From Bactericera cockerelli (Eukaryota; Arthropoda; Insecta; Hemiptera; Triozidae): DNA of 64,000 bases. The notes under the pieces were generated by a model, which was not told the origin of the DNA, searched no databases, and saw nothing but the letters and a program-made list of their open reading frames with translations. Positions 2,251-60,031 of this stretch are shown in pieces (within the stretch, counting starts at the first letter, position 1; every line of letters begins with the position of its first letter). Location: the NCBI GenBank assembly GCA_024516035.1, contig CM044965.1:24909165-24973164 (forward strand). Reading direction: 5' to 3'. A program made the translations under genes and the position numbers.

Positions 2251-2362
2251 CTGAGGAAAATAGTCAGGAACCAGGAAAGAGATATCATGCGAATCATTCC
2301 CATGTTTTGCAGCTTCTCATGGAGGTTAGGTAGATACTCTTCTATCAGATCATTCATGACAC
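2251..2362 (-). CDS. TBC1D9: TBC1D9-like exon 13 (TBC domain, last exon in window)
   Basis: 112 bp, residues about 614-650, acceptor TTCACAG and donor GTAAAT. It reads [19 protein letters not shown] and then [13 protein letters not shown], matching the family's [14 protein letters not shown] motif. Phase 1 entry from exon 12 across the satellite-filled intron is correct, so the satellite does not break the gene. A SINE-like repeat (family E) in the sense direction ends about 17 bases before the acceptor. The next exon must lie left of the window. Confidence 0.94.
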
Positions 2363-58000: not shown

Positions 58001-60031
58001 TTTGAAACCCAGCCGGGACATGACAAGTTATCCTCCCGCATTTGGGATTCTTACCACATAATAATACACCTCTTGGGCTTACTGCTGGAATAATGGGACT
58101 TAATAGTATAAATCGGGCAGTATAAATAAGGCGATATTATTATTATCATTTGAAGAAGCATTTGTGTGTATTTATTTTCTTTGTGTCACAGTAGAATCTC
58201 GCTGAATTGAAATGCCGATAGGTCGAAAATTTCTTTAACTCGAAAGAATTCTTCAGCCCTTGTCGATCTTCGCTCCTCATTTGAAATCCCGATAACTCGA
58301 AAATCTCGATATTTCGAAATGGCGCTTCTGTTCCTTGAATTTAGAGTTAGCGGGATTCTATTAAATTATATTTATCCCGTTTTCATTGAAAGATGGGGAA
58401 TTATTTGTTATAAGGTTTATATTAGAAATTCAATAATGTAATGTTATTTCTTTTTGCACTGATAGTCAAGTTGTTAATAGCTAGTCTGTTGATCTAGGTA
58501 GCGTAGGGATCCGTTGGTTCGAATCCCACCCAGTGCATGAATCTTTCCTCATTCATTTGAGTTTGTGATGACATAATAATAAGACTCTAAGGCCGGAAAC
58601 AATAGACCTCTTTGTAATACCTCTGTGGCGCAATCACGGATTGCGTACTGTGTAAGATAGGGAAAACCGACGCTTAGCAATGACTTGTGATATAGAATTT
58701 GTCTATTAATTTCGCCCTAATAGACGTTTTTGTAATACCTCTGTGGAGCTAAGTCACGGATTGCGTACTGTGTAAGATAGAGAAAACCGACGCTTAGCAA
58801 TGATTGTGATAAAGAATTTTTCTAAAAAAATCTTAAATCTGTGGTTTCAATAGTATACCACAACCAGACAAAGGGTTAACTTCGCCCTGAGGGTTAGATG
58901 GTAGACAATGTTTTAAGCATTATCCTCGCCTGGTGCTTACCTTCCTCTAAAGAGTGCTATTATTTTTTTTTTTCCAGGTCGAAGCTTACGACGGCATATT
59001 CCTGAGTAACGGGCCGGGGGACCCAGACGTGTGCTCCGCCACTGTTGCCAACCTTCGCCAGGCCCTGCAGACCATGGAGAACAACCAGGCGTGGAAACCT
59101 ATCTTCGGGATATGTCTGGGCCACCAGTTGCTAGCCAGTAGTATCGGGTGCAACACGTACAAGTTGAAGTAAGTTTTCTTTCCAGACCATGACTTTTGCA
59201 TAGTAAGTTTTTTTTCAGACCGTGCCTTCATATATTAAGGGCGGAATCAATAGACGTTTTTGTAATACCTCTGTGGCGCTAAGTCACGGATTGCGTACTG
59301 TGTAAGATAGGGAAAACCGACACTTACCAACGACTTAAGTTATTGATGTTGTCTATTAATTCCGCCCTAAATGTGGTATGCAGAGTCCTTACTGTAGGGA
59401 TGCCTGGGTCATTTGTCCCTTCAGCTGATTTTGTTATGCAGAGACGTTTGTTTGAAGCGCCTGCGCGCATGCGCATTCAGATGTCTCTTTAATAAATAAT
59501 TGTTAAGGTCGAAGTTTTCGCTATTGCAAGCTCTGGACCACCCTACAGTGAACCCTATAGGGATAAAAAAAACGTCTCTGCATACCAGCCTAAGTTTTTT
59601 TTCAGTCCATGACTTTAATATAGTAAGTTTTTTTTTTCAGACCATGACTTTCACATAGTAAGTTTTTTTTTCAGACCATGATTTTCATATAGAAAGTTTT
59701 AACAGCATGGTGACACTTACAGTCATATGAGTTTCATTTACCAGATTAACACAATGGTGACACTCATATAAAAATGAGTTTCATGCCATTTAACATGTTT
59801 TTTTTATATTATTTTTTATTTTAAAAACCACCTCTTTTATTTCAGGTACGGAAACCGAGGTCACAACCTTCCCTGTCTGCTGCAGGATACAGGCAAGTGC
59901 TTCATGACGTCACAGAACCACGGATACGCGGTGGACGTCACCGCTCTACCGGCGGGATGGAAACCGCTCTTCACCAACGCCAACGATCACACCAATGAGG
60001 GCATCGTGCATGAAACTCGACCTTTCTTCAG
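51955..60031 (+). CDS. CAD: CAD (carbamoyl-phosphate synthetase 2 / aspartate transcarbamylase / dihydroorotase), 5' six exons
   Basis: Six coding exons (listed separately) join in phase into about 342 codons of the N-terminal glutaminase part of CAD, the cytosolic enzyme for the first three steps of pyrimidine synthesis. It shows the small-subunit start, then the class I amidotransferase domain with GICLGHQ, whose Cys (about 263) is the nucleophile. The catalytic His-Glu pair (HPEH in relatives) would be on the next exon, which I could not find before the right edge. The carbamoyl-phosphate synthetase, dihydroorotase and transcarbamylase parts are outside the window. A plain carbamoyl-phosphate synthetase small subunit cannot be fully excluded, but intron-split animal genes of this type are normally CAD. 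It is divergent from the TBC gene. Confidence 0.95.
52055..52176 (+). repeat. 61-bp tandem duplication spanning the CAD exon 1 donor
   Basis: Two nearly identical 61-bp units start with AAGTGG|GTAAGTTAAA. The first contains the real exon 1 end and 5' splice site; the second repeats the exon's last bases and the donor. Using the second donor would add 61 bases and shift the frame. Confidence 0.93.
52556..52735 (+). mobile_element. LINE-like 3' tail ending in (AAT)n
   Basis: GGGTGGAAGAGATTGCCATA GACAATAACCCCGCC, then TTTCATTGTATTTTACTGTA and CTAATATAAAGC followed by AAT repeats. The same tail, always cut at the 5' side, occurs at about 100-195, 11755-11935, 12165-12345, 34320-34415, 36075-36330 and 53340-53480. 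The pattern of 5' truncation with a shared tail suggests a non-LTR retrotransposon; no reverse transcriptase is present. Confidence 0.65.
52863..53000 (-). mobile_element. SINE-C fragment
   Basis: Reverse-strand body (CCCCGGAACCGCTTTCGCAT) and part of the head (GACCGGGATTTGAACCCGCA); the rest of the head is degraded. Confidence 0.82.
54724..54802 (+). other. tRNA-like sequence
   Basis: A perfect T-arm (CTGGG TTCGAAT CCCAG) and an A-box-like GTGGCCGAATGGT, but the acceptor stem does not pair well. It lies right before the 3'-splice-site repeats of CAD exon 2. Probably a SINE head or tRNA remnant. Confidence 0.5.
54806..55381 (+). repeat. 3'-splice-site minisatellite upstream of CAD exon 2
   Basis: Units of about 37-48 bp based on TTTCATTTCCAGTGTTCCAA plus a CT-rich spacer. 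Five are at 54806-55000, three at 55240-55368, and the real acceptor (TTTCATTTCCAG|TGTTCCAG) is the last in the series. Two decoys (54818, 55303 region) keep AG|TGTTCCA exactly; the others have AAT, GAT or TAT in place of CAG. So the acceptor and the first seven bases of the exon have been copied upstream. Confidence 0.92.
55382..55520 (+). CDS. CAD: CAD exon 2
   Basis: 139 bp, residues about 36-81, acceptor TTCCAG and donor GTGAGT. It reads [20 protein letters not shown] then [15 protein letters not shown], nearly invariant in this family. The exon is bracketed by two unrelated minisatellites, each built from one of its splice junctions: 3'-splice-site repeats at 54806-55381 and 5'-splice-site repeats at 55521-55810. 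The true sites were chosen because they are the only ones giving correct phase (1 in, 2 out). Confidence 0.97.
55521..55810 (+). repeat. 20-bp 5'-splice-site minisatellite downstream of CAD exon 2
   Basis: Fourteen complete 20-bp units in exact register plus a partial fifteenth, beginning at the first base of intron 2. Consensus is GTGAGTAGCGATAGCGGGAA; each unit boundary reads AA|GTGAGT like the true exon end (CTCAA|GTGAGT). One unit has lost the GT (GAGAGT) and one reads GTAAGT. In effect the exon is followed by about 14 equally good donors. Confidence 0.97.
55964..56158 (+). mobile_element. SINE-D copy (within a duplicated block)
   Basis: Head GAGGTAGCTCAGTGGTCAAG with B box GGTTCGAAACC, then ATGAAAAGTTATCC, TACGTCTTGGGCTTACTGCT and AATCGGGCAGTATAAGTAAA, ending in ATT repeats. 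Together with the 150 bp before it, it is nearly identical to 57796-58143. Confidence 0.88.
56389..56659 (+). CDS. CAD: CAD exon 3
   Basis: 271 bp, residues about 82-172, acceptor TCTCAG and donor GTAAGT. It reads [50 protein letters not shown] and ends VADVSTK. It matches the region W......L..WL...I.G..GVDTR.LTK.IRE.G of glutaminase small subunits. It ends in phase 0. It is GC-rich relative to the flanking introns. Confidence 0.96.
56728..56955 (+). mobile_element. SINE-F copy
   Basis: Head CCGACCTCAATAGCTTGATC and GCTCAAGTCCCGGTTTCAGC, tail GTAAAGTGAGTTTGAGTAGT and GTGATTAACACAAATATGAT. In CAD intron 3. Confidence 0.85.
57094..57250 (+). mobile_element. SINE-D copy
   Basis: Head TCTCGGTAGCTCAGTGGTCA and GCGGGTTCGAAACTC, body with GACAAGTTATCCTCCCATTT, truncated before the usual tail. 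Confidence 0.85.
57628..57762 (+). CDS. CAD: CAD exon 4
   Basis: 135 bp, residues about 173-217, acceptor TTTCAG and donor GTACTT. It reads [20 protein letters not shown], then [20 protein letters not shown]; the DCGLKYN.IR.L..RG..V.VVPWD pattern marks the start of the amidotransferase domain. A stray 18-bp copy of part of its start (GGTCACCTACAACCCAGG) lies at 57553-57570, 58 bp upstream of the exon. Confidence 0.96.
57948..58143 (+). mobile_element. SINE-D copy (second duplicated block)
   Basis: As the 55964 copy, in CAD intron 4; its head has diverged (CACCCACGGGTTTGAAACCC). Confidence 0.87.
58191..58375. mobile_element. Short inverted-repeat element
   Basis: CAGTAGAATCTCGCTGAATT at the left and AGCGGGATTCTATTA at the right; rich in TCGAAA words. 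Likely a pogo/Tigger-type nonautonomous element; assigned on termini only. Confidence 0.55.
58463..58615 (+). mobile_element. SINE-E copy
   Basis: Forward copy: TGCACTGATAGTCAAGTTG head, GGTTCGAATCCCACCCAGTG, GTTTGTGATGACATAATAAT. In CAD intron 4. Confidence 0.83.
58885..58966 (+). mobile_element. SINE-E tail immediately upstream of CAD exon 5
   Basis: GGGTTAGATGGTAGACAATG, TTATCCTCGCCTGGTGCTTA and CTCTAAAGAGTGCTATTA match the 3' part of family E in sense orientation; a 12-T run and the CAG acceptor of CAD exon 5 follow at once. Confidence 0.82.
58978..59168 (+). CDS. CAD: CAD exon 5 (catalytic Cys)
   Basis: 191 bp, residues about 218-280, acceptor TTTCCAG after a 12-T tract, donor GTAAGT. 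It reads [20 protein letters not shown], then [24 protein letters not shown] is the oxyanion-loop signature and Cys about 263 in GICLGHQ is the nucleophile of the amidotransferase. It ends with AA of a Lys codon. A sense-oriented SINE-like tail sits right upstream of the acceptor, and a 34-bp repeat starting at the donor follows. Confidence 0.97.
59169..59700 (+). repeat. 34-bp donor-plus-acceptor-like repeat after CAD exon 5, split by insertions
   Basis: From the first base of intron 5, units read GTAAGTTTTTTTTCAGACC then ATGACTTT.ATATA. Two are at 59169-59236 and three to four degraded ones at 59585-59700. Each unit holds a donor-like GTAAGT and, 10-15 bases later, a T-run with CAG. The interruption holds a 131-bp foldback element (59236-59370) and a second small inverted-repeat element (about 59434-59584). 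Confidence 0.87.
59236..59370. mobile_element. 131-bp foldback element
   Basis: Ends AGGGCGGAATCAATAGAC and GTCTATTAATTCCGCCCT are inverted. Body GTAATACCTCTGTGGCGCTA AGTCACGGATTGCG. Partial or complete relatives are at 13040-13165, 13251-13394 and 58620-58820. Inserted in the 34-bp donor repeat of CAD intron 5. Confidence 0.85.
59846..60031 (+). CDS. CAD: CAD exon 6 (last CAD exon seen)
   Basis: 186 bp, residues about 281-342, acceptor TTTCAG and donor GTAAAT. It reads [22 protein letters not shown] and [15 protein letters not shown], all standard in the amidotransferase domain, and ends PFFS with the Ser codon split. The next exon should start with the VQFHPE segment carrying the catalytic His and Glu. 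I do not see it between 60032 and 64000. Confidence 0.96.

What the first reader, a model, noticed from the sequence alone, without database searches (positions are those of the whole stretch)
2251..60031. Splice junctions of two genes repeatedly copied into their own introns
In at least eight of 19 exons one edge is tandemly repeated in the adjoining intron, and the repeated unit always includes the splice site: donors for TBC exons 5, 8, 10, 11 and 12 and CAD exons 1, 2 and 5; acceptors for TBC exon 9 and CAD exon 2. Unit lengths run from 20 to about 340 bp and the units are unrelated in sequence, so this is not one repeat family spreading. Exon interiors are not repeated alone. Two unrelated neighbouring genes show it, which suggests a process tied to splice junctions or to a local genome habit: for example repair at R-loops or stalled transcription, template switching, or reverse-transcribed pre-mRNA fragments. 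Not described under any name I know.
Basis: partly seen in the sequence, partly recalled or inferred. Interest (0 to 1): 0.88.

Follow-up and report, generated by a model that had tools for sequence, protein, structure and literature searches.

The report
Splice-junction minisatellites ("mirages") in insect genes
In two neighbouring genes of what looks like an insect, pieces of DNA that straddle exon-intron borders have been copied in tandem into the introns, a known oddity called "mirages" in lancelets; the copies look like harmless debris rather than working parts.

Summary
I rebuilt 13 exons of a TBC1D8/9-type gene (- strand) and 6 of CAD (+ strand); both frames are open. Of 36 exon edges, 10 are spanned by local direct repeats in a self-BLAST and an eleventh (CAD exon 5 donor) by reading: 9 of 19 exons. 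"Not described under any name" is wrong: amphioxus papers call such duplications "mirages" (Adh3, globins, TnC, PGBD5). The window is very unlikely to be amphioxus; a protein tree puts it among Hemiptera (99/99, long branch). So it is a known kind in a lineage where my searches found no report. Copies look neutral: 18, 13 and 33 distinct variants at codon positions 1, 2 and 3 (about 150 sites each), as expected if copies drift and the exon is constrained. Dispersed elements split two arrays, which speaks against an assembly artefact. Whether splice junctions are hotspots is undecided: 8 of 27 automatically called arrays touch an edge, against 1.4 expected if first units fall at random (P 3e-5) and 4.5 if whole arrays do (P 0.05); by bases covered there is no excess. 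The genome-wide test could not be run.

The parts
2251..45643 (-). TBC1D8/9-like gene, 13 exons (45643-45597, 44878-44706, 44292-44122, 43019-42923, 41229-41049, 39767-39691, 18484-18428, 17504-17309, 13899-13682, 12788-12625, 11694-11440, 10392-10189, 2362-2251); the protein is incomplete at exon 13
   Evidence: Open 650-aa reading frame with GT/AG introns; Pfam RabGAP-TBC, GRAM; 48-51% identity to its best insect hits
51955..60031 (+). CAD gene (N-terminal part), 6 exons (51955-52060, 55382-55520, 56389-56659, 57628-57762, 58978-59168, 59846-60031); incomplete at exon 6
   Evidence: Open 342-aa frame; Pfam CPSase_sm_chain, GATase; PDB hits to carbamoyl-phosphate synthetases
2730..10297 (-). 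Array of TBC exon 12 donor: about 67 further copies, units 101-119 bp and one of 165 bp that keeps the exon interior
   Evidence: TRF, self-BLAST, copy parsing
10382..10619 (-).
   Evidence: TRF; self-BLAST
11059..11537 (-). Array of TBC exon 11 donor, 153-180-bp unit, about 3 copies with the real one, about 100 nt of exon in the unit
12348..12667 (-). Array of TBC exon 10 donor, 125-bp unit, 2.6 copies with the real one, 43 nt of exon
13786..15254 (-). Array of TBC exon 9 acceptor, 343-344-bp unit, 3.4 copies, plus a further copy near 15250; up to 114 nt of exon
16160..17346 (-). Degenerate compound array of TBC exon 8 donor, 6 further donor copies
   Evidence: self-BLAST; copy count; TRF sees only sub-repeats inside it
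40267..41119 (-). Array of TBC exon 5 donor, 140-bp unit, 4 further copies, 71 nt of exon; split by a dispersed element at 40850-41028 flanked by GAGTAGGTCC on both sides
   Evidence: insert matches 10796-10627 (90%) and 52865-53002 (85%); flanking repeat read; Rfam tRNA match 40850-40918
52052..52178 (+). CAD exon 1 donor, 61-bp unit x 2, 97-98%
54804..55388 (+). CAD exon 2 acceptor, 39-40-bp unit in two blocks (54804-54990, 55238-55388)
   Evidence: AG kept in 2 of 8 copies
55519..55809 (+). CAD exon 2 donor, 20-bp unit x 14.6
57549..57570 (+). 22-bp copy (95%) of the start of CAD exon 4, 80 bp upstream, without the acceptor
59167..59700 (+). CAD exon 5 donor, 34-bp unit starting at the donor; interrupted by a dispersed element at 59236-59372 and a further 218 bp
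   Evidence: read; TRF 59591-59700; not spanned in the self-BLAST; insert has other copies at 58588-58720, 58719-58803, 13391-13251, 13163-13053

Best explanation
These are minisatellites born at splice junctions, the structures called mirages in amphioxus. A short tandem duplication, probably by replication slippage or microhomology-guided template switching, took in part of an exon and part of the adjoining intron. Because the outermost copy stays joined to the rest of the exon, the first donor (or last acceptor) still works and the extra copies are spliced out, so the event is tolerated. Later slippage and unequal exchange lengthened some arrays, and dispersed elements inserted into others. 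The copies have no function of their own. Shown: the anatomy, head-to-tail order, copies on the intron side only, divergence close to neutral, and age greater than some insertions. Inferred: the birth mechanism, the tolerance by splicing, and the extent in the genome.
For: Anatomy: 10 of 36 edges by self-BLAST plus CAD5 donor by reading. Distinct variants in six TBC arrays (six of the seven TBC edge arrays, the exon 12 acceptor left out; no CAD array): codon position 1, 18 over 150 sites; position 2, 13 over 149; position 3, 33 over 149; intron part 36 over 260; 30 of 64 exonic variants synonymous against 16.7 expected (P 0.0005). The ratio of positions 1-2 to 3, about 0.47, is near the 0.5 that a neutral copy compared with a constrained exon should give. 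CAD2 acceptor copies keep AG in 2 of 8. Dispersed elements interrupt the TBC5 and CAD5 arrays. TBC12: exon interior TAAGAACCCCCAG and the sequence after the donor GTAAGAACGCTCAG share TAAGAAC, consistent with a microhomology junction. Published RT-PCR on globins and Adh3 data suggest no effect of mirages on splicing (passages).
Against: Apart from the CAD2 acceptor, copies nearly all keep their splice signal: donors 98 of 99 that could be scored in eight arrays (67 of 67 in TBC12), acceptors 6 of 6 in the TBC9 and TBC12 arrays; no distinct variant hit the 12 splice-site positions, where the intron rate predicts about 1.7. That fits young arrays but does not exclude constraint. Random tandem duplication with fixed first units predicts only about 1.4 edge arrays of 27, and 8 were found, so plain random placement may not suffice. 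No RNA data were available, so tolerance by splicing is not shown here.
Confidence: 0.72

Rival explanations
1. Splice junctions are true hotspots: tandem duplication starts preferentially at them (for example at stalled transcription, R-loops, or because donor-like words such as GTAAG offer microhomology), in this lineage and in amphioxus.
For: 8 of 27 TRF arrays touch an edge against 1.39 expected for randomly placed first units, P 3.3e-5; over five score cut-offs 6-8 of 19-30 arrays, P 2.7e-5 to 7.0e-4. Compact parts only: 8 of 15, expected 1.32 by unit and 4.01 by whole array, P 6.7e-6 and 0.013. Hand-curated list 11 of 28 against 1.40, not removed by matching G+C; counting only units with 12 or more exon nt, 6 against 1.11, P 5e-4. 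In 3 of 8 donor arrays the unit starts within 6 nt of the splice site against 0.76 expected, P 0.024.
Against: By bases covered there is no excess: 7-10 edges against shifted means of 10.9-15.5 in six settings; without the largest array 6-9 against 6.3-11.0. Whole-array placement over the full span: 8 against 4.50, P 0.053; over the five cut-offs P 0.04-0.17. Exonic fraction of the unit does not differ clearly from uniform, KS P 0.058; no donor preference, P 0.23. The window was chosen because it looked striking, the curated list was made by eye, the offset test is post hoc, and there are only two genes.
Confidence: 0.22
2. Assembly or sequencing artefact (collapsed or expanded repeats, polishing errors).
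For: Many 1-bp differences in homopolymer runs among units of the TBC12 array, by reading; the BflGb6 mirage was aberrantly assembled in a draft amphioxus genome.
Against: TRF matches within edge arrays are about 81-98%, not near-identical; eleven unrelated units; two arrays are interrupted by dispersed elements that have other, diverged copies; the coding frame stays open across all 19 exons.
Confidence: 0.05
3. The copies are functional, as decoy splice sites or as alternative exons under selection.
For: Synonymous excess in the copies (30 of 64 against 16.7 expected); splice signal kept in nearly all donor copies (98 of 99).
Against: The synonymous excess has about the size expected from constraint on the real exon alone; 33 amino-acid-changing variants and 1 stop are among the 64; AG lost in 6 of 8 CAD2 acceptor copies.
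Confidence: 0.04

Closest known systems
Amphioxus 'mirages' (Adh3, globins BflGb6 and BflGb9, TnC, PGBD5)
   Same: Minisatellite-like tandem copies spanning an exon-intron border, donor or acceptor, units 10-160 bp in Adh3 and globins, many copies with AG/GT signals, 81-100% identity in BflGb6 (passages of PMC3087553). Lancelet PGBD5 has 60-bp and 108-bp repeats at splice sites (passages of PMC3902484).
   Different: Another animal lineage (insect by protein trees); 9 of 19 exons in two adjacent genes; units up to 344 bp and one array of about 67 units over 7.5 kb; no RNA or haplotype data here.
Intron gain by tandem genomic duplication (AGGT duplication)
   Same: Tandem duplication of exon-containing DNA that duplicates splice-like signals (passages of PMC3443670).
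   Different: I see no new intron here: existing introns grow. TBC12 comes nearest, since its unit is almost wholly exonic and its junction carries the donor GT. Intron positions were not compared with relatives.
Internal tandem repeats at exon-intron borders of human segmental-duplication genes
   Same: Minisatellite repeats at an exon-intron boundary that may lead to novel introns (passages of PMC2812944).
   Different: Those are mostly expanded within exons and change gene structure; here the exons are intact and the copies lie in introns.
Ordinary intronic minisatellites
   Same: Head-to-tail units, non-integer copy numbers, variants shared among units; 19 of 27 TRF arrays in the gene span are not scored as touching an exon edge, although three to five of these 19 are detached parts of edge arrays by my reading (16379, 40274, 54804, 59591).
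   Different: The unit takes in an exon edge.

Membership tests
Mirages | Tandem, minisatellite-like repeats whose unit spans an exon-intron border | tested here: met
   10 of 36 edges by self-BLAST, CAD5 donor by reading
Mirages | Both donor and acceptor borders can be affected | tested here: met
   8 donors of 19, 3 acceptors of 17
Mirages | Copies do not disturb regular splicing | not testable with these tools
   No RNA data; suggested for amphioxus
Mirages | Length instability between haplotypes or somatic cells | not testable with these tools
   One haplotype only
Intron gain by tandem genomic duplication | A new intron bounded by duplicated AGGT | not tested
   Intron positions were not compared with relatives
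Minisatellite | Tandem units of tens of bp or more, several copies | tested here: met
   TRF, periods 20-344 bp for the edge arrays; CAD1 donor has only 2 copies

The most novel reading that the evidence does not exclude
In some animal genomes, insects included, splice junctions are mutational hotspots for tandem duplication, so that introns grow from their ends by copying exon edges; mirages would then be a widespread, unrecognised source of intron length, spare splice sites and occasional intron gain.
Probability: 0.2. Interest if true: 0.75.

Novelty: new member of a known kind. Interest (0 to 1): 0.5.

Why it matters
In the papers I saw, mirages are a lancelet observation. A dense set in an arthropod suggests that the process is more general and can be measured with long-read genomes. 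It bears on how introns lengthen and how spare splice sites and new introns arise, and it warns gene predictors, since each copy offers a plausible exon end.

Tried and rejected
Coverage-based circular-shift test: gives no excess, but edge arrays supply much of the covered bases and an array cannot run through an exon, so I do not rest on it alone; it is reported as a result against the hotspot reading. Occurrence counts of mismatches by codon position (17/2289, 22/2268, 132/2237) looked like strong coding constraint on the copies; variants are shared among copies, so I replaced the counts by distinct variants. Idea that arrays crowd near exons in general: array density is alike in compact and remaining parts, 0.50 against 0.44 per kb. 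Idea that edge arrays last longer: median match 92.5% against 94.5%, P 0.39. Donor against acceptor preference: P 0.23. Species by one dispersed-repeat pattern in genome contigs: 0 matches; one 1301-base stretch against plasmids: no match. First exon 10 acceptor guess gave a broken frame and was replaced. Passages of three further papers were looked at for the same structure: earthworm metallothionein (fourth-exon duplications absent from the transcript and an intronic minisatellite, no statement about splice junctions), amphioxus huntingtin (tandem repeats only), amphioxus VCBP (complete or partial exons with splice sites in VCBP3 introns, data not shown by its authors).
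Full report
What the window is. It is animal DNA with two genes head to head: a TBC1D8/9-type gene (Rab GTPase-activating family) on the - strand and the start of CAD on the + strand. I placed 13 and 6 exons by reading splice signals and keeping the frame open. Both joined frames are open, 650 and 342 aa, and carry the expected domains. The TBC protein is 48-51% identical to its best insect hits and 37-38% to frog TBC1D8B. A tree of 27 rows puts it in a group of 8 whose named members are all Hemiptera (99/99), on a long branch of 1.53; a CAD tree of 24 rows puts it with two insects and unnamed sequences (95/95). 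Proteins longer than about 1138 aa could not be candidates, so the order is likely rather than proven. No named amphioxus row was available; the low identity to vertebrates and the insect placement are my reasons for setting amphioxus aside.

The observation. A self-BLAST gave 1056 repeat pairs. Of 36 exon edges (19 donors, 17 acceptors), 10 are spanned by a direct repeat no more than 4 kb away. CAD exon 5 donor was not spanned there; I count it as an eleventh because its 34-bp unit starts at GTAAG and recurs beyond an inserted element. A 22-bp copy of the start of CAD exon 4 lies 80 bp upstream, without the acceptor. The 11 arrays do not match each other at E<=1e-3, and no pair has both copies in exons.

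Anatomy. Copies of donors lie only downstream and copies of acceptors only upstream of the real exon. The exonic share of the unit runs from about 1 nt (CAD5 donor) to nearly all (TBC12 donor). In TBC12 the unit begins inside the exon at TAAGAACC, and the sequence after the real donor reads GTAAGAACGCTCAG, so exon interior was joined to the exon end and the donor word lies on the junction. One unit of 165 bp keeps the full interior; the other parsed units are 101-119 bp. About 67 further copies fill 7.5 kb.

Age and reality. A dispersed element with relatives at 10796-10627 (90%) and 52865-53002 (85%) splits the TBC5 array; it is flanked by GAGTAGGTCC on both sides, which reads as a target-site duplication, and holds an Rfam tRNA match. 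Another element with four further copies interrupts the CAD5 array. The arrays are therefore older than those insertions and are not simple assembly products. Homopolymer indels in the TBC12 array may still be sequencing errors.

Are the copies functional? Counting every mismatch suggests coding constraint, but the copies share ancestry. Counting each distinct variant once, in six of the seven TBC arrays, gives 18, 13 and 33 variants at codon positions 1, 2 and 3 (150, 149 and 149 sites) and 36 over 260 sites in the intron part. A neutral copy compared with a constrained exon should differ about half as often at positions 1-2 as at position 3; the ratio is 0.47. Synonymous variants are 30 of 64 against 16.7 expected (P 0.0005), which the same argument explains; 33 variants change the amino acid and one makes a stop. 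Against this reading, splice signals are kept in 98 of 99 scored donor copies and in 6 of 6 acceptor copies of the TBC9 and TBC12 arrays, and no distinct variant hit the 12 splice-site positions, where the intron rate predicts about 1.7; this is too little to show constraint. In the CAD2 acceptor array AG is kept in 2 of 8 copies.

Is the splice junction a hotspot? Three nulls disagree and I give all. (1) Base coverage, circular shifts over the gene span, six settings: 7-10 edges observed against means of 10.9-15.5; without the largest array 6-9 against 6.3-11.0; no excess. (2) Random placement of whole TRF arrays (27 arrays, score at least 100): 8 touch an edge, 4.50 expected, P 0.053; over five score cut-offs P 0.04-0.17; in the compact parts only (TBC intron 6 and the intergenic stretch left out), 8 of 15, 4.01 expected, P 0.013. 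(3) Random placement of one unit per array, with placements wholly inside an exon or holding a whole exon removed, because selection would remove them: 1.39 expected, P 3.3e-5, over the five cut-offs P 2.7e-5 to 7.0e-4; compact parts 1.32, P 6.7e-6; my hand-made list of 28 arrays, 11 at edges, 1.40 expected, P 2e-8, hardly changed by matching G+C; with at least 12 nt of exon, 6 against 1.11, P 5e-4. Null 3 fits the birth of an array best, since an exon edge can only lie in its outermost unit; but the window was picked for its look, the analysis covers two genes, and arrays may grow at their flanks, which moves the answer towards null 2. I therefore call the excess suggestive. Donor units that start within 6 nt of the splice site are 3 of 8 against 0.76 expected (P 0.024, post hoc); the exonic fraction of units does not differ clearly from uniform (KS P 0.058).

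What is known. [quoted passage not shown] The PGBD5 paper reports 60-bp and 108-bp repeats at splice sites in lancelet and cites TnC and Adh (PMC3902484, passages). A human study notes tandem repeats at exon-intron boundaries that may form novel introns (PMC2812944, passages). A review calls tandem genomic duplication the only intron-gain route shown in vivo (PMC3443670, passages); a Drosophila and a potato paper on tandem duplication and intron gain were seen as listings only (PMC2891723; PMC4974935). My eight searches of the open library showed no paper that reports mirages by that name outside lancelets; long lists were seen in part, most subscription papers are not in that library, and the original Adh3 paper was not seen.

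Verdict. A real, named kind of structure in a lineage where my searches found no earlier report, and dense in this window. Most likely it is tolerated debris of tandem duplication.

Noticed in passing
28190-31938: Tandem array of a 652-bp unit, about 96% identical, inside the 21-kb TBC intron 6; touches no exon edge.
   Followed up: partly
54266-54358 (- strand): Rfam match to 5S rRNA (40.3 bits, gathering 38); similar text seems to recur in the window, so a 5S-derived SINE is possible.
   Followed up: no
59236-59372, 58588-58720, 58719-58803, 13391-13251, 13163-13053: Dispersed element of about 135 bp whose ends read GGGCGGAAT and CCGCCCTAA, MITE-like by look; one copy sits inside the CAD5 array.
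   Followed up: partly
38448-38768: Open frame with [12 protein letters not shown], which I recall as a mariner-type transposase motif; not tested.
   Followed up: no
19586-19816 (- strand): Open frame ending [36 protein letters not shown], not part of my TBC model; could be an extra exon, another gene or chance.
   Followed up: no
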